From Chlorobium sp. (GTDB lineage Bacteria > Bacteroidota > Chlorobiia > Chlorobiales > Chlorobiaceae): a stretch of DNA of 64,000 nucleotides. The translations under genes were made by a program, and so were the position numbers. How positions within the stretch are numbered: position 1 is the stretch's first letter; each line of letters opens with the position of its first letter. Positions 4,997 to 17,568 of the stretch are shown here, piece after piece. Under the pieces are notes generated by a model. The model saw only the letters and a list, made by a program, of their open reading frames with translations, was not told where the DNA came from and did no database searches. The stretch covers positions 124,001 to 188,000 of the forward strand of contig SZXW01000010.1 of assembly GCA_005862285.1 (NCBI GenBank), read 5' to 3'.

Positions 4997-7183
4997 TCAG
5001 TGCTCGAAAAGCATTTCAAGGTAGGTCGGAAGCTGCCAGCGGCTGCGGTCGACCATAAGTTCGAGCCTGTCGGCAACCTCGCGAACGCTGACCATGTGAG
5101 GCAACAGTGTTTCAACACAGAAGTCGGCTTTTTCGAACTCGGTATCGAAGCTTTCGATCTTCTCTACCAGCTCGTCGAGCTCTGAGGTAAGATCGATCAG
5201 TTCGGAAAGACCTTCGGCCAGGTTTTTGAGATGATTTGCCTGGCTTGATACCGCAGCTTCGCTGAGACCGATGGCTTCAGAAGCTGCAAGAAGGTTGTTG
5301 AACGAATTGCCGATATCGCCCTGGTACTCGGAAATATCAGGAATGACAATAGTCTTGAGCATGAGCTGCAGCGTGCGGGCTTCGATATCGATACCCTTGA
5401 TGTAGCGCTCGAGGCGGATATGCAGACGAGAATGGATCTCCTCTTCGGTAAGAACACCGTATTTCACGAACATTGCCCTGACGTCGGCTTTCTCGAGGGT
5501 ACGGAGAGCCTGCGGGGTGTTCTTCATGTTCGGAAGACCCCTTTCCCTGGCAGCTGACTGCAGCGCTTCGCTGTAGTTGTCGCCCGGATAGCGGATATCC
5601 CTGGTGGCGGTTATGCCTTCACGAAGGGCTTCGAGGATTGCGGAATCCCGGTCCTTCCCTGCAGCGATTTTCGCTTCGATCGCTTCGGCAACTTCGTCGA
5701 TCGCTTCGGCCATCAGTGTGTTGAGCACCATGTTCGGCACGGAAGGCGACTGTGAGGAACCAACGGCGCGGAACTCGAATTTGTTTCCGGTGAAAGCGAA
5801 CGGCGAAGTCCTGTTGCGGTCGGTGTAATCCTTGTTGAGCGAAGGCACCTGTGAAAGCCCGAGGTCGAGGAACTGCTTCTCTGTTTTCAGATCGGTCTTG
5901 CCGCTTTCGATAGCATCGAGCACGTTCTCGAGCAGTTCGCCGAGGAAGACGGTCACGACAGCCGGAGGGGCTTCGTTCGCACCGAGGCGGTGGTCGTTGC
6001 CGATGCTGGCAATGGACATCCTGAGAACGTCAGCTCTCTTGTGTACACCTTTGAGAACTGCGACGAGGAAGACGAGGAACTGGATGTTCTCGGCCGGAGT
6101 ATCGCCCGGATCGAGCAGGTTAACACCAGTGTTGGTGCCGATCGACCAGTTGTTGTGCTTGCCGGAGCCGTTGATGCCTGCAAAAGGTTTTTCAAACAAG
6201 AGAAGAGCGAATCCTTTCTTGTCGGCTACCTTGCGCATGACCTCCATCGTGAGCAGGTTGTGGTCTACCGCGATGTTCGCCTCTTCGAAGATCGGAGCGA
6301 TTTCGAACTGGTGCGGAGCAACCTCGTTGTGGCGGGTCTTGGCAGGGATACCGAGCAGATAAAGCTCCTGTTCGACTTCCTGCATGAACTCGAGCACGCG
6401 GTCGGGAATGGCGCCGAAGTAATGGTCTTCGAGCTGCTGGCCTTTCGGCGGAAGTGCACCGAGAAGAGTACGGCCAGTCATCACGAGGTCAGGACGCTGG
6501 GTGTAGAATTTCTTGTCAATAAGAAAATACTCCTGCTCGCATCCGCAGAAAGTCTTCACGCGGGAAACACCGTTGACGCCGAGAATTTCGAGAAGCCTGA
6601 TGGCAGACTTGCTGACCGCATCCATAGAACGGAGAAGCGGGGTCTTTGAGTCGAGGGCTTCACCATGATAGGAGATGAAGACTGTCGGAATACAAAGCGT
6701 AAGGTTGTTACCACCCTTCATGAGGAATGCCGGGCTCGAAGGGTCCCATGCGGTATATCCGCGGGCTTCGAATGTGGTGCGCATACCACCTGAAGGAAAA
6801 CTGGATGCGTCAGGCTCACCCTGAATAAGCTGCTCGCCGGAAAAACGCTCGATCGGGGTACCGTCACGGTCTATCGAAAGGAATGCGTCGTGTTTCTCGG
6901 CCGTTGAACCGGTCATCGGCTGGAACCAGTGAGTGTAATGGGTTGCACCCTGCTCCATCGCCCACTCCTTCATACCATGGGCAACAACGCCTGCGATTGA
7001 TTCTGGAATCTTTTTTCCCGCCTTGATAGTATCCTGCAATGCCACGAAAACTTCTTTCGGAAGCCTTGCACGCATGGCCTTATGGTCAAATGTCAATGAC
7101 CCGTAGTAGGCGGAAACCGGAACTTTACTTTCACTGCTCAAGTGAACCTCCTTGTTTTTTTGCATGATTTGGTGTTTTGACAA
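4997..7183 (-). CDS. glnN: glutamine synthetase type III
   Basis: A 728-residue enzyme, the usual size for the type III (GlnN/GlnA3) family and far longer than type I. It makes glutamine from glutamate, ammonia and ATP in the cytoplasm. Visible motifs include the glutamate-binding CGCEQEYFLID, the ATP/metal segment INGSGKHNNWSIG, and RTSPFAFTGNKFEFRAVGSSQS split over residues near 470, with C-terminal helices typical of GSIII. It lies 31 bases behind an Lrp/AsnC-type regulator gene on the same strand, so the two are probably cotranscribed. The context suggests nitrogen-dependent or amino-acid-dependent control. Confidence 0.95.
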   Translation of the reverse strand: MSKHQIMQKNKEVHLSSESKVPVSAYYGSLTFDHKAMRARLPKEVFVALQDTIKAGKKIPESIAGVVAHGMKEWAMEQGATHYTHWFQPMTGSTAEKHDAFLSIDRDGTPIERFSGEQLIQGEPDASSFPSGGMRTTFEARGYTAWDPSSPAFLMKGGNNLTLCIPTVFISYHGEALDSKTPLLRSMDAVSKSAIRLLEILGVNGVSRVKTFCGCEQEYFLIDKKFYTQRPDLVMTGRTLLGALPPKGQQLEDHYFGAIPDRVLEFMQEVEQELYLLGIPAKTRHNEVAPHQFEIAPIFEEANIAVDHNLLTMEVMRKVADKKGFALLLFEKPFAGINGSGKHNNWSIGTNTGVNLLDPGDTPAENIQFLVFLVAVLKGVHKRADVLRMSIASIGNDHRLGANEAPPAVVTVFLGELLENVLDAIESGKTDLKTEKQFLDLGLSQVPSLNKDYTDRNRTSPFAFTGNKFEFRAVGSSQSPSVPNMVLNTLMAEAIDEVAEAIEAKIAAGKDRDSAILEALREGITATRDIRYPGDNYSEALQSAARERGLPNMKNTPQALRTLEKADVRAMFVKYGVLTEEEIHSRLHIRLERYIKGIDIEARTLQLMLKTIVIPDISEYQGDIGNSFNNLLAASEAIGLSEAAVSSQANHLKNLAEGLSELIDLTSELDELVEKIESFDTEFEKADFCVETLLPHMVSVREVADRLELMVDRSRWQLPTYLEMLFEH

Positions 7184-7214: not shown

Positions 7215-7742
7215 TTATTGCTTCCTTGACCGCTTTTCTTCGAAGGTGATCAGTACCTGCCGGTCCTGAAGATTGTTGCGAACGATTTCAGAGCTGATCT
7301 TGTTTTTCTTTTTCAATTGCGACAGAACAAAACTGGTATTGGTGCCAAGCACGCCCGGCCAGCTCTGGATCCTTGAAAGAAAGCTTTCGAGAGAAGAGGT
7401 ATTGTGGGTCATGACCTTGAGGATATGTGAACCTTCACCGGTAACGGAATAACACTCCATGATCTCATCCTCTTTCATGACATGTTCCATGAAAGATTTG
7501 TAGTGTTTGGAAGAATCAATCCTGACCCTGATAAATGCCTGAATATCAAAACCAAGCTGCCGTTCGTCGACCTCCATGGTAAAACCCTTGATGATATTGC
7601 TCTTCTGAAGCTTGTCAAGGCGCTCGCTGACTGATGGGATTGAAAGACCGACTATTTCTGCAAGCTCACTTAATCGGACCCTTCCGTTTTCACCCAGGGA
7701 CTCGATAATTTTCAGGTCGATAAGATCGAGATGTCCGGACAT
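7215..7742 (-). CDS. Lrp/AsnC family transcriptional regulator
   Basis: A 175-residue regulator. The first 60 residues form the Lrp helix-turn-helix (DLKIIESLGENGRVRLSEL, then VGLSIPSVSERLDKL). The rest is the RAM/AsnC ligand-binding domain, with ECYSVTGEGSHILKV as its core. About 25 extra residues at the C-terminus are rich in lysine and arginine. It directly precedes glnN, so regulation of glutamine synthetase by an amino acid or 2-oxoglutarate-related effector is a reasonable inference. An AT-rich inverted repeat just upstream (7771-7821) is a candidate autoregulatory site. Confidence 0.92.
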   Translation of the reverse strand: MSGHLDLIDLKIIESLGENGRVRLSELAEIVGLSIPSVSERLDKLQKSNIIKGFTMEVDERQLGFDIQAFIRVRIDSSKHYKSFMEHVMKEDEIMECYSVTGEGSHILKVMTHNTSSLESFLSRIQSWPGVLGTNTSFVLSQLKKKNKISSEIVRNNLQDRQVLITFEEKRSRKQ

Positions 7743-8304: not shown

Positions 8305-9669
8305 GTGAAAGTAGCGATCTTCGGTGCCGGAGTTGCCGGTCTCAGCGCAGCAATAGAACTCGTGGACCGTGGCCATTCGGTTGAGATTTATGAAAAAAGG
8401 AAAATTCTCGGCGGAAAAGTTTCTGTATGGAAGGATAATGATGGCGATTCCATAGAGTCCGGCCTGCACATTGTATTCGGGGGGTACGACCAGCTGCAGA
8501 AATACCTGACAAAAATCGGGGCGGAAAACAACTACCAGTGGAAAGAGCATGCACTGATCTACGCCGAACCTGACGGCAGACAGTCTTTCTTCAGAAAGGC
8601 GAACCTGCCAAGCCCCTGGGCTGAAGTTGTCGGAGGACTGCAGACCGATTTTCTCACCATGTGGGATAAAATATCCCTCATCAAAGGTCTCTATCCGGCA
8701 CTTGCAGGCAACGAAGAGTACTTCCGGAGCCAGGACCACATGACATATGCTGAATGGCACCGGATGAGAGGCGCCTCGGAACATTCGCTTGAAAAACTGT
8801 GGAGGGCGATCGCGCTTGCCATGAACTTCATCGAACCGAACGTCATCAGCGCCCGTCCGATGATTACCATCTTCAAATATTTCGGTACTGATTACGCTGC
8901 CACCAAATTCGGATTCTTCCGCAAGAACCCTGGAGAATCGATGATCGAGCCCATGCGCCGATATATCCAGAGCAGAGGCGGACGAATTTTCGTCGATGCA
9001 AGGCTCGGCAGATTGGAGCTGGAGGAGAATGGTTCCGTCAAATCAGCGATTTTCAGCGACGGCCAGAAAATCGAGGCTGACGCCTATATCTCCGCCCTGC
9101 CGGTACATAGTCTGAAGAAAATCCTTCCGGCACCCTGGCTCGCCCACGATTATTTCCTGAACCTCCATCAGTTCACCGGCAGTCCGGTGGCAAACTGCCA
9201 GCTGTGGTTCGACCGGAAAATAACCGATACCGACAACCTGATGTTTTCACAGGGCACGATTTTCGCGACGTTTGCCGACGTTTCCCTCACCTGTCCCGAT
9301 GATTTCCAGAAAGGGAACGGCACAGCGAACGGAGGAAGCGTCATGAGCCTTGTGCTTGCGCCTGCACATCAGCTTATGGACCTTCCGAACGATGTCATCA
9401 TCCGGCTTGTGATGAAGGACATCCACAACCGGTTCCCGTTGTCGAGGAACGCGAAACTACTGAAATCGACCCTTGTCAAAATTCCTCAGTCGGTTTACAA
9501 GGCAGTCCCGGATGTCGACAAGTTCAGACCGGATCAGATAAGCCCTGTGAGCAACTTTTTCCTTGCCGGTGATTATACCGACCAGCACTACCTCGCCTCG
9601 ATGGAAGGCGCCGCACTGAGCGGAAAACTTGCAGCCGAAAAGCTTGTATCGAAGCTCGGAAAAAGATAA
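8305..9669 (+). CDS. crtQ: CrtP/CrtQ-type carotene desaturase, likely zeta-carotene desaturase
   Basis: A 454-residue FAD enzyme of the plant/cyanobacterial-type desaturase family. The dinucleotide-binding motif is at the extreme N-terminus (VAIFGAGVAGLSAAIEL, then GGKVSVW), and the C-terminal FAD-contact motif NFFLAGDYTDQHYLASMEGA is present. In green sulfur bacteria this family desaturates phytoene or zeta-carotene on the way to lycopene. The choice of CrtQ over CrtP rests on overall resemblance and on neighbours (chlorosome and bch genes nearby), not on a decisive residue. The start is a GTG at 8305 that places the FAD motif directly at the N-terminus; no clear ribosome-binding site precedes it. 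Confidence 0.85.
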   Translation: MKVAIFGAGVAGLSAAIELVDRGHSVEIYEKRKILGGKVSVWKDNDGDSIESGLHIVFGGYDQLQKYLTKIGAENNYQWKEHALIYAEPDGRQSFFRKANLPSPWAEVVGGLQTDFLTMWDKISLIKGLYPALAGNEEYFRSQDHMTYAEWHRMRGASEHSLEKLWRAIALAMNFIEPNVISARPMITIFKYFGTDYAATKFGFFRKNPGESMIEPMRRYIQSRGGRIFVDARLGRLELEENGSVKSAIFSDGQKIEADAYISALPVHSLKKILPAPWLAHDYFLNLHQFTGSPVANCQLWFDRKITDTDNLMFSQGTIFATFADVSLTCPDDFQKGNGTANGGSVMSLVLAPAHQLMDLPNDVIIRLVMKDIHNRFPLSRNAKLLKSTLVKIPQSVYKAVPDVDKFRPDQISPVSNFFLAGDYTDQHYLASMEGAALSGKLAAEKLVSKLGKR

Positions 9670-9736
9670 AACATGAACGATTTCCGGCGGATGTGCGGTT
9701 AGTCCACTGAAAGCTTTAACGTAACTTCATGTACCA

Positions 9737-10792
9737 ATGAACCCTCAGACTTCTCTCCATAAAAGGCAAAGTCTGCTTGCTGACGCCAGGGAACAGATAA
9801 AGGTACTCCAGAAGACCGACTGCCATATACCTTTCTTTTGCAAAAAGCTGGCCGAGTGCGGTCTCTTTCCCATCGAGTCTGACAGCACGTCTATCCTTCA
9901 GGTCAATACCGGGTACCGCTGCAACCTGCTCTGCAGGCACTGCCATGTCGATGCGGGACCGGACAGGAAGGAGGAGATGAGCCGAGAAACAATGCAGTAC
10001 TGCCTCGATGCACTTGGCAAAAGCCGGATCCTGACTCTCGACATAACCGGAGGAGCCCCGGAAATGAACACCGAACTTCCCTGGTTTATCCGTGAAGCAC
10101 GAAAAATCATGCAGGATGGAGAGATCATGGTCAGGACGAATCTCGTTATCCTGGTTAACGGAAACCGGTACAGGGATTTTCCGGATATTTACAAGGAAAA
10201 CCGGGTGACCATCATCGCCTCCCTCCCCTGCTATACCAGGGAAAATGTCAATGCCCAGCGGGGAGCAGGAGTATTCGAAAAGTCAATCGTGGCTTTGAAA
10301 ATGCTGAACTCCATAGGATATGGAAAGGATGGCAGCGGACTCGGGCTGAACCTGGTCTTCAATCCCGGCGGGCCTTCTCTTCCCGGTCAGCAGCAGGCTC
10401 TCGAAGCGGAATACAAAAAGCAGCTTTACGAGAACTTCGGAATCCTTTTCAGCACTCTTTATACCATCACCAACATGCCGATCAGCAGGTTCCTCGAATC
10501 CCTGCTCGATTCGGGACGGTATTGTGAATACATGAAGCTGCTCGCTGACCATTTCAACCCGCGTGCCATTAATAATCTGATGTGCAGGACAACCGTTTCC
10601 GTGGGCTGGGACGGAACGCTTTACGACTGCGACTTCAACCAGATGCTGAAACTTCCGCTGAGCCCCCCATCACCGCGCCACATTCGAGATTTCGATGAAA
10701 ACCTGCTCCGTTCACGCTCAATCACGATCGGACAGCACTGTTTCGGCTGTTCGGCTGGTGCAGGTTCAAGCTGTCATGGTAGCCTCATATGA
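9737..10792 (+). CDS. arsS: ArsS-like radical SAM protein (arsenosugar type)
   Basis: A 351-residue radical SAM enzyme. The cluster-binding motif CNLLCRHC is near residue 58, followed by the SAM-binding TGGAPEM near residue 110. The C-terminal cysteine-rich domain (DUF3641 type) shows CRTTVSVGWDGTLYDCDFN and CFGCSAGAGSSCHG. This architecture matches ArsS, which is thought to add the 5'-deoxyadenosyl group to dimethylarsenite. The stop overlaps the start of the next glycosyltransferase gene in an ATGA, and a second glycosyltransferase follows, the usual arsenosugar-type gene set. No ArsM methyltransferase gene is adjacent. Whether the substrate is arsenic in this organism is inference. Confidence 0.85.
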   Translation: MNPQTSLHKRQSLLADAREQIKVLQKTDCHIPFFCKKLAECGLFPIESDSTSILQVNTGYRCNLLCRHCHVDAGPDRKEEMSRETMQYCLDALGKSRILTLDITGGAPEMNTELPWFIREARKIMQDGEIMVRTNLVILVNGNRYRDFPDIYKENRVTIIASLPCYTRENVNAQRGAGVFEKSIVALKMLNSIGYGKDGSGLGLNLVFNPGGPSLPGQQQALEAEYKKQLYENFGILFSTLYTITNMPISRFLESLLDSGRYCEYMKLLADHFNPRAINNLMCRTTVSVGWDGTLYDCDFNQMLKLPLSPPSPRHIRDFDENLLRSRSITIGQHCFGCSAGAGSSCHGSLI

Positions 10793-11508
10793 ACGCACCT
10801 CGTTACACTATAATCCCGCTCGGGGACTGTTTCAGGGAACATCCCCGCCTTTCAGGACTTTTTATGCCTGAGCGCACCAGGATGCTTGCGATTTTTTCAA
10901 AAAACCCTGTTACCGGGCAGGTCAAAACTCGTCTTGCCAAGTCCATAGGAAACGAAAAAGCGCTCGAAGTCTATGAAATCCTCAGACGGCATACCGACAG
11001 CGTCACTGCCTTGGCAAAGGCAAAAAGGGTTGTCTTCTATTCAGACTTCATACCGGCTTCCGACATCTTCCTCAACGAGGGAGCAGAAGCGAAACTGCAG
11101 GATGGCGACGACCTCGGAGAACGCATGCACAACGCGATATGCGATATGCTTGAAAGCGGTTTCAGCCACGTCGTGCTGATCGGAACCGACTGTCCGGACC
11201 TGAATGCCGCAATCATCGAGGACGCATTTTCCGCACTTGAAAACCACGATGCCGTCATCGGTCCGGCGAAAGACGGAGGGTTCTATCTGATCGGCCTGAA
11301 AAAAAGCTGTCCGGGGCTTTTCCTTCAGAGAACATGGAGCACCTGTTCAGTGCTTCGGGAAACCATCGAAACACTCGAAAAAAAAGGAATGTCATATATG
11401 CTTCTTCCGGAACTTCAGGACATCGATACCTTCGAAGACCTGAAACAAAGCCGCTTATGGAATGAAAACCTGTCCTGCTTGTATCTTGATGAATACGGAG
11501 TACAATAG
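10789..11508 (+). CDS. TIGR04282-type glycosyltransferase (DUF2064)
   Basis: A 239-residue protein of the nucleotidyl/glycosyltransferase-A fold family. Motifs are IFSKNPVTGQVKTRLAKSIG near residue 30, GERMHNA, LIGTDCPDL (the metal-binding DxD-like loop), and AKDGGFYLIGL. The family is recurrently found with ArsS. The annotated start overlaps the arsS stop as ATGA, which suggests translational coupling; family alignment would favour the in-frame ATG at 10864. It probably works with the next gene in sugar transfer to the ArsS product or a related lipid. Confidence 0.85.
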   Translation: MNAPRYTIIPLGDCFREHPRLSGLFMPERTRMLAIFSKNPVTGQVKTRLAKSIGNEKALEVYEILRRHTDSVTALAKAKRVVFYSDFIPASDIFLNEGAEAKLQDGDDLGERMHNAICDMLESGFSHVVLIGTDCPDLNAAIIEDAFSALENHDAVIGPAKDGGFYLIGLKKSCPGLFLQRTWSTCSVLRETIETLEKKGMSYMLLPELQDIDTFEDLKQSRLWNENLSCLYLDEYGVQ

Positions 11509-11548
11509 TATCGGAGAGAACGAACACTATAAACAGCAGCGCTATCAC

Positions 11549-12241
11549 ATGTCAGCAACCGGTTTGAGCATCATCATTCCCGCCTGGAACGAGGAAAACG
11601 GTATCGCCGGTACACTTGAATATCTGCTGAATATCACGGTAAAATATAGCGATATCGAAATAATCGTCTGCGATGCGGGGTCTGACCGTACCTCGGAGAT
11701 TGTATCACTTTATCCGGTCACCCTCTGCCGGACGGAAAAAGGACGCGCCCGGCAAATGAATGCAGGAGCAGCACTTGCAAGCCATGATACCCTTTATTTC
11801 CTGCACGCGGACACCACTCCGCCGCAAAGTTTCGTTGACGATATCCTCTCTGCTGTCAGAAACGGCAAGGAGGCCGGATGTTTCCAGATGCAGTTCGACG
11901 ATCCGAACCCGATCATGGGAATGTACGGATGGTTTACCAGGTTCCCTTTCCAGCTTTGCCGCGGTGGCGACCAGTCGCTTTTTATCACAAAGGAACTGTT
12001 CAGGAAAATCGGTGGTTTCACCGAATTCATGCAGGTCATGGAGGATATCGAGATCATCGCCCGGATCGAAAAGGAAACCTCGTTCCATATACTCGACAGG
12101 GTCGTCGTGACTTCGGCGAGAAAATATCACAGCAACGGCATCATCCGGCTCCAGCTGATATTCGGCACAATCCACCTGCTCTATGCGGTCGGTGCGGACC
12201 AGGAAACTCTCGTTCGTTATTACAGGGAAAATATCGCGTAA
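11549..12241 (+). CDS. TIGR04283-type family 2 glycosyltransferase
   Basis: A 230-residue GT-A glycosyltransferase starting at the ATG at 11549 (MSATGLSIIIPAWNEE), which places the family 2 start motif at the N-terminus; an in-frame ATG at 11462 lies inside the previous gene and is less likely. Motifs are IIVCDAGSDRTSEI, FLHADTTPP (DxD equivalent), and GGDQSLFITKELF, then MEDIEIIARI. Members are recurrent partners of ArsS and the TIGR04282 protein. It is the last gene of a four-gene co-directional run starting with crtQ. The acceptor is not known. Confidence 0.87.
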   Translation: MSATGLSIIIPAWNEENGIAGTLEYLLNITVKYSDIEIIVCDAGSDRTSEIVSLYPVTLCRTEKGRARQMNAGAALASHDTLYFLHADTTPPQSFVDDILSAVRNGKEAGCFQMQFDDPNPIMGMYGWFTRFPFQLCRGGDQSLFITKELFRKIGGFTEFMQVMEDIEIIARIEKETSFHILDRVVVTSARKYHSNGIIRLQLIFGTIHLLYAVGADQETLVRYYRENIA

Positions 12242-12478
12242 TTGCACGCTCCAGGTTCAGGACTGAACGAATCATTACATCTGTTGTTCCCGATCAAGGG
12301 GATGCCATAAAGAACCCGGAAATATATTCATCAGGAACCAGTGCATCGATTCATGACACAACAACCCGGAAGTGCAGATAATAAGAGCAATTTTGGCGTT
12401 TTTCTGAAAAAACGGAAAGATGAGATTATTATATTAAACCAAAGTAAAACCTAAAATCCTCTAAACACCTTAAACGTT

Positions 12479-13249
12479 ATGGCTGCAGACGAAATTAAAA
12501 AAACAGAAAACTTACCCGGCCAGGGGGGACCGCAGAAAACCGAGAGCAATGCAGGTAATGGCGATTTCGCCAATCTTATCGGCAATGTCGGCGTTCTGCT
12601 TGATTCTACGATCGATACCGTCCAGGGCATGATCAATTCCGTCAGCTCCGTGACGGGACAATTGATAGAAGGTGTGAACAGTACCATAAAATCCGAACCC
12701 CTACAGGAAATTATCCAGAATGTCAACACTGTCTCCGGCCAGCTCATTGAAGGGGTAAATACCGTTTCAGGCCAGCTCATCGAAGGCGTCAACGCCACGA
12801 TCAATTCCCAGCAGGTCCAGGAGTTCGGCAAAATGCTGAAAAACCTGGTCGAGAATGTAAACTCCACGGTAAACTCCGGACAGATTCAGAACCTGTTCAA
12901 CAATGTAAGTTTCGGCCTCGGCCAGCTAATGAACAATGTTTTCGCTCCGGTTATGTCTGGAGGACATGATGAGTACCAAAAAAAGGAAGTCAAGCAGATT
13001 CCGTTCTGCAGCCATGCACCTGAACCAAAATCCCTGGCTCCTGCTGCTGCCGCTCCAGTACCCGTTACCCCTGCGGCAACTCAGCCAGTAAAACCCGTAT
13101 CGGTTCCAGTTATTCCGGCAGCATCTGCGCCTGCTGCCAAACCCGCAGCCCCGGCTCCAGTTGCTCCGGCGGCTTCATCACCGGCTGCCCAGCCAGCATC
13201 GAAAGCTCCAGACGCGCCTGCAGCACCTGAAAAACCGGCACAAAGCTGA
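12479..13249 (+). CDS. chlorosome envelope-like protein with Ala/Pro-rich tail
   Basis: A 256-residue protein. Residues 28-160 are built of amphipathic, glycine- and asparagine-spaced helices (for example NLIGNVGVLLDSTIDTVQG) like those in chlorosome envelope proteins of the CsmC/CsmD/CsmH kind. An 11-residue unit, TVSGQLIEGVN, occurs twice in tandem at about 84-105, with a related copy at 57-67. Residues 181-256 are an alanine/proline tail with many PAA and PVAP units. Its place near crtQ and the bch genes fits a chlorosome role, and the length is closest to CsmH, but I did not assign the symbol. A strong terminator follows. Confidence 0.65.
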   Translation: MAADEIKKTENLPGQGGPQKTESNAGNGDFANLIGNVGVLLDSTIDTVQGMINSVSSVTGQLIEGVNSTIKSEPLQEIIQNVNTVSGQLIEGVNTVSGQLIEGVNATINSQQVQEFGKMLKNLVENVNSTVNSGQIQNLFNNVSFGLGQLMNNVFAPVMSGGHDEYQKKEVKQIPFCSHAPEPKSLAPAAAAPVPVTPAATQPVKPVSVPVIPAASAPAAKPAAPAPVAPAASSPAAQPASKAPDAPAAPEKPAQS

Positions 13250-13369: not shown

Positions 13370-13816
13370 TTATTTGCGGCCGATACCGGTATGACCGAAC
13401 CCGCCTTCACCCCGTTGCGTTTCTCCAAGCTCGGCCACCTCTTCAAAACAAACATGCTCGACCTTTGCGACAACCATCTGCGCAATGCGGTCACCATGAC
13501 TAACCGTAAAAGGCTCCTTGCCGTAATTGATGAGAATCACCTTCACCTCTCCGCGGTAATCGGCATCGATGGTTGCCGGCGTATTGGGTAATGAGATCAT
13601 CGAACGCAGAGCGAGTCCGCTTCTCGGACGCAGTTGCGCTTCGAAACCTTCAGGAAGTTCTATCGCAAAACCCGTCGGGATCAGTGCCGTTGTCAGGGAC
13701 TGGATAGTTACCGGAGCATCGAGACAGGCGGATATGTCCATGCCCGCTGCATGAGCGGTTGCATATGCCGGCAATACGGCTTGTTTGTTCAGACGAACAA
13801 TCTTTACTTGTAACAT
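13370..13816 (-). CDS. dut: dUTP diphosphatase
   Basis: A 148-residue trimeric-type dUTPase of normal length. It hydrolyses dUTP to dUMP and diphosphate, keeping uracil out of DNA. All five family motifs can be read: [10 protein letters not shown] (1), RPRSGLALR (2), [14 protein letters not shown] (3), GDRIAQMVV (4) and the C-terminal P-loop-like GEGGFGHTG (5). It is a single gene on the minus strand, convergent with the chlorosome-type gene. Confidence 0.96.
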
Positions 13817-16500: not shown

Positions 16501-17418
16501 TCAGCTTACCTTGAACTCACCGGTATCGATCCACTCATTTTTCAGAAGGGACCACCAGTCAAGGGCCAGGCCTTTCAGAACGTAGTCATAAGGCAGCCAT
16601 CCGTATCCAGCATCACCCCATTCCGTTCCCCATGAATTTCTGATCAGAAGGGCCCCTTTGGTTTCAATACCGCCGGTACTGGTGTTCTGTATTTTGATAT
16701 TATCATCGAATCCGAAAGCTCCTATAGCATGTCCGCCGAGTATTTTCTCGCCATTCGAAGGAAACGGGATCATGCCTGTCTTGTCCGCCTGGAAGATGGA
16801 ACTGAAAACCGTAAATCCGAACATCGAAGGCAAACCCGCCATGAGCAATGTTTTAATCTGGGCAAGAAGCACGTTCCTTGCCATCCCTTCGGGATCGAGC
16901 CGGTAATAGCTGATCGCCTGGTAATTCTGTGCGAAAGCATAGCAGAAAGCGGAGGGTTCCTTTTCGAAATCGTCGACAACATAGGGCCAGTACTCCTCAG
17001 GCGGCACGCCCATGAGCACAAGCGCCTCCATGGTCGAACGGAGAAATGCGCCCGTATCGCCTGTCCAGTTGAGCAGGTTCCGGGTTACCTTGTACAGAAA
17101 CAGCCTCGATGCATCGATATGTTTTCCGAATGCCTTCCTTTCGAAATATTCTACGATGCCGACTCCGGCATGTGCTGTGCAGGCACCGATGCTCTCCTGG
17201 TTTTCGATCGGCGAACACCACTGCCTGAGATCGACAGAAAAGGGAAAACTTTTAACCGGCTTCAGAACGCCGGCTGACGAAAGCATAGCTTTGACAGAAT
17301 CCTTCTCGCCGAGTTTCTTCTTGCGCAGAGATACCTTGTTCTGCTCTGCAGTGTAATCCCTGGTATCAGGATAATCAGGCAACCAGCCTAATCCGAGACG
17401 TTTCGATACTTGATCCAT
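16501..17418 (-). CDS. C1 (papain) family cysteine protease
   Basis: A 305-residue protease. The start is taken at 17418 (MDQVSKRLGLGWLPDYPD), since family members begin just before the LGWLPDYPDTRD motif; an upstream in-frame start at 17457 is possible. The catalytic set is visible: the oxyanion glutamine and nucleophile in IENQESIGACTAHAG (about Q79 and C85), the histidine in GGHAIGAFGFDD, and the asparagine in IRNSWGTEWGD. No signal peptide and no long inhibitory prodomain are seen, so the protein is predicted to be cytoplasmic or exported by another route. A GH19 hydrolase gene lies 150 bases upstream on the same strand. Confidence 0.88.
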   Translation of the reverse strand: MDQVSKRLGLGWLPDYPDTRDYTAEQNKVSLRKKKLGEKDSVKAMLSSAGVLKPVKSFPFSVDLRQWCSPIENQESIGACTAHAGVGIVEYFERKAFGKHIDASRLFLYKVTRNLLNWTGDTGAFLRSTMEALVLMGVPPEEYWPYVVDDFEKEPSAFCYAFAQNYQAISYYRLDPEGMARNVLLAQIKTLLMAGLPSMFGFTVFSSIFQADKTGMIPFPSNGEKILGGHAIGAFGFDDNIKIQNTSTGGIETKGALLIRNSWGTEWGDAGYGWLPYDYVLKGLALDWWSLLKNEWIDTGEFKVS

Positions 17419-17568
17419 AGTTCCTATCCGTTTATTTATTAAGACAACCTCTTGCAACCACCTTTGATTGCATTATCCTGAAAATCACCGCAAACCGGCA
17501 CCAATGATGATTGTTGCCGGTTCAAGAAAGGGTATGCTTTAAAGAGCAAATAAACAAAAACCTTACGT

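What the first reader, a model, noticed from the sequence alone, without database searches (positions are those of the whole stretch)
9737..12241. Arsenosugar-type operon between carotenoid and chlorosome genes
ArsS-like radical SAM enzyme plus TIGR04282 and TIGR04283 glycosyltransferases, with an ATGA overlap, lie directly between crtQ and the chlorosome-type gene. No arsM is adjacent. The position raises the possibility that the set serves a photosynthetic lipid or pigment, or that arsenosugar synthesis is linked to the antenna.
Basis: partly seen in the sequence, partly recalled or inferred. Interest (0 to 1): 0.55.

Follow-up and report, generated by a model that had tools for sequence, protein, structure and literature searches.

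The report
ArsS cassette between crtQ and csmH
Green sulfur bacteria carry, next to a carotenoid gene and often a light-antenna gene, two sugar-transfer genes that are nearly always kept and an arsenic-sugar enzyme that comes and goes, mostly without the methyltransferase expected to feed it.

Summary
An intact arsS (TIGR04167, 432 bits) is followed by TIGR04282 (ATGA overlap) and TIGR04283, between crtQ and a csmH-type gene, with no arsM beside it. No arsM model is over its cut-off anywhere in the genome. The order is old: in 48 of 52 ArsS-bearing Chlorobiaceae genomes crtQ lies directly upstream. 'Arsenosugar operon' holds only in part. The two sugar genes are the core: together in 79 of 86 Chlorobiaceae genomes, arsS in 52. 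Twenty-eight of 34 ArsS-less genomes keep the pair, and two hold ArsS fossils just before TIGR04282. TIGR04282 resembles guanylyltransferases (CofC/3-PG type) most. A match of 100 bits or more to the arsM model is found in 17 of 52 ArsS-bearing Chlorobiaceae against 41 of 50 ArsS genomes outside. Best reading: a nucleotide-activated glycosylation pair with a job of its own, onto which ArsS puts a dimethylarsinoyl-adenosyl branch, fed mostly by methylated arsenic from elsewhere. A link to photosynthesis rests on position alone.

The parts
8305..9669 (+). crtQ-type carotenoid desaturase (FAD amine-oxidase family), directly upstream, same strand, 67 bp before arsS
   Evidence: TIGR02731 411 bits, TIGR02732 350 bits, both below cut-off; Pfam PF01593
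9670..9736 (.). crtQ-arsS spacer; no terminator-like site listed inside
   Evidence: sequence; scan lists none between 9670 and 9736
9737..10792 (+). arsS-type radical SAM enzyme (351 aa), CxxxCxxC at C62/C66/C69 and C-terminal C335, C338, GSSC346
   Evidence: TIGR04167 432 bits, PF12345 181 bits; 75 positions at least 98% invariant in Chlorobiaceae and in other ArsS; model resembles SPASM/twitch enzymes, best VIA Z 19.9 to SkfB
10789..10792 (+). ATGA overlap: arsS stop / TIGR04282 start
10789..11508 (+). TIGR04282 protein: CofC/guanylyltransferase-like (labelled glycosyltransferase); alternative starts 10864, 10882
   Evidence: 203 bits; model pLDDT 90.6; VIA Z 27.0 to 3cgx, 21.1 to 3-PG guanylyltransferase 7p97
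11462..12241 (+). TIGR04283 family-2 glycosyltransferase; probable start 11549
   Evidence: 227 bits; PF00535 69 bits; ATG 11549
12353..12432 (+). gap before csmH: two promoter-like sites (12353-12382, 12404-12432) and one terminator-like site (12397-12422); consensus matches only, csmH may have its own promoter
12479..13249 (+). csmH-type chlorosome envelope protein (3 repeats), flanking gene
   Evidence: TIGR03058 77 bits
4997..7742 (-). conserved left flank: glnN (4997-7183) and lrp-type regulator (7215-7742), part of the same syntenic block
13370..13816 (-). conserved right flank: dut
   Evidence: NF001862 198 bits

Best explanation
The core is a two-gene activation-and-transfer pair. TIGR04282 (CofC-like) makes a nucleotide-activated sugar or phosphoester. 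TIGR04283 (GT2) transfers it to an acceptor, probably a lipid or glycerol. The pair must have a job of its own, since 28 of the 79 Chlorobiaceae genomes that carry it have no ArsS. ArsS is an optional front end. It adds the 5'-deoxyadenosyl radical of SAM to dimethylarsenite; a purine-nucleoside phosphorylase (unlinked, present in this genome) could release a dimethylarsinoyl-ribose-1-phosphate; the pair would then activate and transfer this in place of its ordinary sugar. In this genome, as in 35 of 52 ArsS-bearing Chlorobiaceae, no match of 100 bits or more to the arsM model was found, so the methylated arsenic would have to come from neighbours. Shown: genes, families, conservation, loss of arsS, selection in the pairs tested, predicted fold of TIGR04282, presence of a phosphorylase and of acr3. 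Inferred: every reaction step, co-transcription with crtQ, acceptor, source of arsenic.
For: Presence across 86 Chlorobiaceae genomes: ArsS 52; TIGR04282 79 plus one cut by a contig end; TIGR04283 78 plus one cut. The pair is together in 79, both are missing in 6; G066 cannot be judged. ArsS-less: 23 of 34 keep the pair right after crtQ, 5 elsewhere, 5 have neither, 1 (G042, 86% complete) is undecided. Four of the 23 are single-contig genomes (G001, G002, G016, G020), so assembly gaps do not explain it. Loss is visible: L135 and L136 hold C-terminal ArsS fossils (E 4e-6, 1e-7) ending at the TIGR04282 start, with the last Cys changed. The best crtQ tree needs at least 8 ArsS changes. dN/dS: ArsS 0.11-0.25 in 7 genome pairs; sugar genes 0.11-0.24 in 8 pairs of ArsS-less genomes. 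The two are one fused ORF in four genomes. A fuller set elsewhere, L217: TIGR04169, ArsS, rhodanese, TIGR04282, PNP, NF038099 ArsM, hydroxylase, DUF547, TIGR04283. Own PNP 310 bits, own acr3 387 bits. Chlorobiaceae ArsS keep the residues invariant in other ArsS. Adenosylation of arsenic by a radical SAM enzyme: PMC12159101, passage.
Against: No metabolite data. The ArsS-independent job of the pair is unknown. A methyltransferase that no model names might do the work of ArsM: the genome has 22 Methyltransf_11 matches, which I did not study one by one. ArsS and arsM go together mildly, not significantly, in Chlorobiaceae (16/36/6/28, Fisher p 0.21; with split G058 0.14), so a tie to a resident arsM is not excluded. 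The 100-bit line is my own; two more ArsS genomes (G071, G072) have partial matches of 93 and 98 bits. The same fold class also holds true glycosyltransferases (mannosylglycerate synthase Z 13.6).
Confidence: 0.55

Rival explanations
1. Plain arsenosugar operon: all three genes exist for arsenosugar or arsenolipid synthesis, with DMAs made by an unlinked or unrecognised methyltransferase; ArsS-less genomes are on the way to losing the rest.
For: NCBIfam names all three arsenosugar biosynthesis proteins. A TIGR04282-like match lies in the ArsS neighbourhood in 50 of 72 outside loci (58 of 80 with the 8 Chlorobiaceae). 17 of 52 ArsS-bearing Chlorobiaceae have an arsM (16 over cut-off, one split).
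Against: 28 of 34 ArsS-less genomes keep the pair, with dN/dS 0.11-0.24 in the 8 genome pairs tested; 13 of them form one clade of genus g2 on the crtQ tree (support 82, 12 of them 95*), which speaks against decay in progress. 35 of 52 ArsS genomes have no arsM match of 100 bits or more; NF038099 is over its cut-off in 0 of 98; TIGR04169 in 0 of 86.
Confidence: 0.2
2. ArsS of Chlorobiaceae has changed substrate: it adenosylates something other than arsenic (for example a lipid or pigment precursor), and the pair glycosylates the product for the photosynthetic apparatus.
For: Fixed place 3' of crtQ, 41 of 47 measured gaps at 100 bp or less, some ORFs overlapping; arsM mostly and TIGR04169 always missing; Chlorobiaceae ArsS form one clade (99*, FastTree), with L64 and V171 in all 51 where the other 80 have Q and T.
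Against: 75 near-invariant positions are shared with ArsS of bacteria most of which carry an arsM-type gene; only seven positions differ consistently. ArsS is missing in 34 of 86 members of the same family.
Confidence: 0.15
3. Neutral neighbourhood: the cassette has sat at this spot since the ancestor and its place between crtQ and csmH means nothing for function.
For: The block also keeps glnN, lrp, dut and bshB. Five genomes carry the pair on other contigs. In the 10 loci without ArsS and pair, csmH simply follows crtQ. In G057 the cassette is kept without crtQ upstream.
Against: The crtQ-arsS gap is short in most genomes (median 22 bp in 47 loci, taking the furthest start), which suits co-transcription; not measured.
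Confidence: 0.1

Closest known systems
Arsenosugar biosynthesis operon as seen in Winogradskyella aurantiaca, L217 (TIGR04169, ArsS, rhodanese, TIGR04282, PNP, NF038099 ArsM, TIGR04283)
   Same: ArsS, TIGR04282 and TIGR04283 over cut-off and on one strand; same near-invariant ArsS residues
   Different: No TIGR04169 match and no ArsM over cut-off in this genome; PNP unlinked; fixed position after crtQ; pair kept without ArsS in relatives
ArsS of oxo-arsenosugar synthesis (Cheng et al. 2021, known here only from text and reference list of PMC12159101)
   Same: Same NCBIfam equivalog; radical SAM CxxxCxxC and C-terminal cysteines
   Different: That work concerns arsenosugar makers with a methylated-arsenic supply (recalled); here no ArsM over cut-off
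CofC/FbiD and 3-phospho-D-glycerate guanylyltransferase
   Same: Predicted fold of TIGR04282: Z 21.1 to 7p97 (187 aligned, 2.3 A), 17.8-17.9 to Rv2983; PF01983 CofC 36.7 bits
   Different: 18-19% identity; below the F420 CofC cut-off (41.7 vs 105 bits); no evidence of F420 use
ArsS loci of other Chlorobiales (f2, f4)
   Same: ArsS over cut-off in 8 of 12 genomes
   Different: TIGR04169 beside ArsS in all 8; no crtQ match in the stretches fetched; TIGR04282 on another contig in 7 and 22 kb away in G087

Membership tests
ArsS (TIGR04167 equivalog) | score over curated cut-off along full length | tested here: met
   432.3 bits vs 300, profile 2-303 of 303
ArsS (TIGR04167 equivalog) | radical SAM CxxxCxxC and C-terminal cysteines intact | tested here: met
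   C62, C66, C69, C283, C298, C335, C338, C346 among invariant positions
ArsS (TIGR04167 equivalog) | adenosylation of dimethylarsenite | not testable with these tools
   needs in-vitro assay
Arsenosugar biosynthesis operon | arsenite methyltransferase in operon or genome | tested here: not met
   NF008823 best 79.4 bits vs 263 in own genome; NF038099 no match in own genome at E 1e-20, over cut-off in 0 of 98
Arsenosugar biosynthesis operon | TIGR04169 partner | tested here: not met
   no match in own genome at E 0.001; 0 of 86 Chlorobiaceae over cut-off
Arsenosugar biosynthesis operon | TIGR04282 and TIGR04283 beside ArsS | tested here: met
   203 and 227 bits, both over cut-off
Arsenosugar biosynthesis operon | a nucleoside phosphorylase available | tested here: met
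   own genome C12:43518-44258, 310 bits, unlinked
Arsenosugar biosynthesis operon | arsenosugar or arsenolipid in the cell | not testable with these tools
   needs HPLC-ICP-MS
CofC-like nucleotidyltransferase (fold level) for TIGR04282 | fold of the predicted model | tested here: met
   VIA Z 27.0 to 3cgx, 21.1 to 7p97, 20.1 to 2i5e; Foldseek gives the same top entries
F420 CofC (TIGR03552) | score over cut-off | tested here: not met
   41.7 bits vs 105
Photosynthesis gene cluster member | co-transcription with crtQ or csmH, or pigment phenotype | not testable with these tools
   only position known

The most novel reading that the evidence does not exclude
In green sulfur bacteria TIGR04282/TIGR04283 are not arsenosugar enzymes at all but a core glycoconjugate pathway made next to carotenoid and chlorosome genes, and the ArsS between them adenosylates a non-arsenic acceptor, so that the curated name 'arsenosugar biosynthesis' is wrong for a whole family of phototrophs.
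Probability: 0.15. Interest if true: 0.7.

Novelty: new variant of a known kind. Interest (0 to 1): 0.42.

Why it matters
Names in public annotation tie TIGR04282 and TIGR04283 to arsenosugars. Here they are near-universal in one bacterial family while ArsS and arsM come and go, so the names carry a claim that this family does not bear out. If ArsS works without a resident ArsM, green sulfur bacteria would be consumers of methylated arsenic in sulfidic waters, a link in the arsenic cycle that can be tested with cultured strains. The natural set (ArsS with pair, pair alone, neither, at one locus) is a ready comparison.

Tried and rejected
Rejected: that the cassette is an artefact or a pseudogene (intact ORFs; ArsS dN/dS 0.11-0.25 in 7 genome pairs). 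Rejected: that ArsS was inserted separately in each lineage, since it stands at one spot wherever the contig shows it, G057 apart, forms one clade, and two fossils exist; exchange between strains is not excluded. Rejected: hidden operon-type ArsM.

Led nowhere: paper searches for ArsS or arsenosugars with Chlorobium, for TIGR04167/04282/04283, for CT1414-CT1417 (locus tags recalled), for arsenosugar-arsM-cyanobacteria, for dimethylarsinoyl with radical SAM, for Chlorobium-chlorosome-glycosyltransferase-carotenoid, for arsenosugar-selenoprotein and for guanylyltransferase-CofC listed no study of this cassette by title and abstract start; subscription journals are mostly not held. PMC9312934 and PMC12165603 were searched for passages: the first lists TIGR04167 as a predicted selenoprotein family, the second treats arsenic uptake by Chlorobium biomass and, in the passages seen, names arsenosugars for cyanobacteria. 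The independent-pairs test of ArsS against arsM had too few pairs. Promoter and terminator scan: counts a little above shuffles (8 vs 4.3, 9 vs 6.2), not decisive. HpnH was not among the 50 rows, which says nothing either way.

Rows dropped: of the 72 outside loci 50 were given to the arsM search, because of a cap. The crtQ tree used rows of 260 aa or more, 80 in all. L084, whose contig ends inside TIGR04282, counted there as pair-less, so one of the six pair changes is an artefact. dN/dS was computed on 16 chosen genome pairs. One outside operon (L217) was put through NCBIfam, so the middle class is read as operon-type ArsM from that one member and from arsM matches near ArsS in 29 of 80 loci. 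Parts of the output were cut.

Full report
WHAT IS THERE. The window is part of a 2.61-Mb genome in 15 contigs, 100% complete. The three ORFs are at the stated places and score over the curated cut-offs of TIGR04167, TIGR04282 and TIGR04283. crtQ ends 67 bp before arsS; arsS and TIGR04282 share ATGA at 10789-10792; TIGR04283 most likely starts at 11549, not 11462. No terminator-like site was listed in the crtQ-arsS gap; the gap before csmH holds two promoter-like sites and one terminator-like site, so csmH may be transcribed apart.

IS IT MORE THAN CHANCE. In 98 Chlorobiales genomes TIGR04167 is over cut-off in 60: 52 of 86 in the window's family (f1) and 8 of 12 others. In 48 of the 52 (47 fetched loci and the window) crtQ is directly upstream on the same strand, 41 of 47 measured gaps being 100 bp or less; in three the contig ends, in one (G057, L102) other genes stand there. 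A csmH match was seen downstream in 40 of the 52, in some after several kb; in the other 12 the contig ended or no match was found in the stretch. glnN, lrp, dut and bshB are kept in the same block, so the conservation is of a neighbourhood, not only of photosynthesis genes.

THE PAIR IS THE CORE. TIGR04282 is over cut-off in 79 of 86 f1 genomes and cut by a contig end in one more; TIGR04283 is over cut-off in 78 and cut in one more. Both are present in 79, both absent in six (G022, G025, G026, G029, G030, and G042, which is 86% complete), and G066 is cut inside the first. Of the 34 ArsS-less f1 genomes, 23 hold the pair right after crtQ; in 21 of these csmH follows, in L142 the contig ends, in L108 no csmH match was seen in the remaining 8.7 kb. 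Five hold the pair elsewhere (G032, G062, G064, G084, and G085, where the two genes are on different contigs), five have neither and one is undecided. Single-contig genomes G001, G002, G016 and G020 have the pair and no ArsS, so missing sequence is not the reason. In four genomes the pair is one ORF of 441-449 aa.

ARSS WAS LOST, PROBABLY MORE THAN ONCE. The best crtQ tree (80 rows, quick method, many weak forks) needs at least eight changes of ArsS and six of the pair, one of the latter an artefact of a contig end. Counts of changes do not tell gain from loss, but the fixed spot, the single clade of f1 ArsS (99*, FastTree) and the fossils do: in L135 and L136 a stretch read as the last 38-odd residues of ArsS lies between the crtQ stop and the TIGR04282 start, E 4e-6 and 1e-7, with the last invariant cysteine changed and in L135 a stop inside. 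Of the other 21 pair-only loci one (L119) had a match at E 0.27 and 20 had none at E up to 1 in the 1.8 kb after crtQ. dN/dS is 0.11-0.25 for ArsS in the 7 genome pairs tested and 0.11-0.24 for the sugar genes in 8 pairs of ArsS-less genomes; with ArsS present the sugar genes range 0.09-0.34.

WHERE IS THE METHYL DONOR. NF008823 is over cut-off in 23 of 98 genomes. Among the 52 ArsS-bearing f1 genomes 16 have it (in G024 with one TGA inside; G039 is 7% contaminated) and one (G058) has it in two pieces; six ArsS-less f1 genomes have it. The table 16/36/6/28 gives Fisher p 0.21. Of the eight f2/f4 ArsS genomes one (G087) has it. In G028 and G019, where both genes are on one contig, they are 60-70 kb apart. 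PMC5552862 (passages read) argues that arsM of two Chlorobi came by transfer from delta-proteobacteria, which fits separate histories. The operon-type ArsM, NF038099, is over cut-off in 0 of 98 and TIGR04169 in 0 of 86 f1 but in all eight ArsS-bearing f2/f4 genomes. As a yardstick, 50 of 72 ArsS loci found outside were searched by genome: 19 have NF008823 over cut-off, 22 more have a match of 116-201 bits, nine have neither, their best being 72 bits. One of the middle class, L217, is NF038099 at 578 bits and 123 on NF008823. With a line at 100 bits, 17 of 52 f1 ArsS genomes have an arsM-type gene against 41 of 50 outside; G071 and G072 fall just below with partial matches of 93 and 98 bits. 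The outside set is the best 80 matches to a Chlorobiales-led alignment, mostly Bacteroidota, so it is not a fair sample of bacteria. The own genome has acr3 (387 bits), which suggests that it meets arsenic, and a PNP (310 bits); both are widespread (76 and 93 of 98).

WHAT THE PROTEINS DO. ArsS keeps the 75 positions that are at least 98% invariant in both f1 and other sequences, cysteines included; seven positions differ consistently, L64 for Q and V171 for T being complete in 51 against 80. The model (pLDDT 91.9, low at the last nine residues) resembles SPASM and twitch enzymes, Z 19.9 to SkfB. That a radical SAM enzyme adenosylates arsenic in oxo-arsenosugar synthesis is stated in PMC12159101 (passages read); the primary paper I did not see. 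TIGR04282 is called a glycosyltransferase, but its model (pLDDT 90.6) is closest, after 3cgx (which it also matches by sequence, E 6e-30), to 3-phospho-D-glycerate guanylyltransferase (Z 21.1), a probable nucleotidyltransferase 2i5e (20.1) and Rv2983/FbiD (about 18; the name FbiD is recalled), then mainly to cytidylyl- and uridylyltransferases at Z 13-15, with mannosylglycerate synthase, a true glycosyltransferase, at 13.6. I therefore read it as the activating enzyme and TIGR04283 (GT2) as the transferase. A purine-nucleoside phosphorylase between TIGR04282 and ArsM in the L217 operon suggests the missing step: phosphorolysis of the arsinoyl-adenosine to a sugar-1-phosphate, which TIGR04282 could activate. 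This chain is inference.

VERDICT. The finding is real and conserved. The genes are members of known families; what is unusual is the arrangement and the dependence: sugar pair as core, ArsS as an extra that was lost in part of the family, arsM missing in most ArsS carriers. The arsenosugar reading is possible only if methylated arsenic is supplied from outside or by a methyltransferase that the models miss. The antenna or pigment reading has position in its favour and nothing else.

Noticed in passing
L235:2768-4743 (G032) and L239:5973-7052 (G085): In two ArsS-less genomes the relocated TIGR04282 lies near a NirJ2-like radical SAM/SPASM protein (359 aa; 83 bits, far below cut-off); in L235 a methyltransferase gene follows it. 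May be chance.
   Followed up: partly
L102:9349-15204 (G057): G057 keeps arsS, the pair, csmH, dut and bshB but has secretion/haemagglutinin-like genes (by sequence look) where crtQ should be.
   Followed up: partly
window 8305-12241 against L085: Synonymous distance window-L085 is 0.59 in crtQ but 0.22-0.39 in the three cassette genes, which could mean recombination of the cassette between strains.
   Followed up: no
L223-L234: In f2, f3 and f4 Chlorobiales a more distant TIGR04282 member (31-35% identical in the rows shown) stands apart from ArsS, with varying neighbours and no TIGR04283 match in the rows shown (output was cut).
   Followed up: partly
L058:8649-9335 (G090): An f4 ArsS is followed by another family-2 glycosyltransferase, by sequence look of the polyprenyl-phosphate sugar type.
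   Followed up: no
G000:C1:791024-792609: Two neighbouring radical SAM genes in the own genome match TIGR04167 weakly (48 and 46 bits), far below the cut-off.
   Followed up: no
L240 (G039:C70): G039, 7% contaminated, has a second crtQ-TIGR04282-TIGR04283 set without ArsS, perhaps from a contaminant strain.
   Followed up: partly
window 16501-17457 (-): A papain-like cysteine protease by sequence look; no family search was run on it.
   Followed up: no
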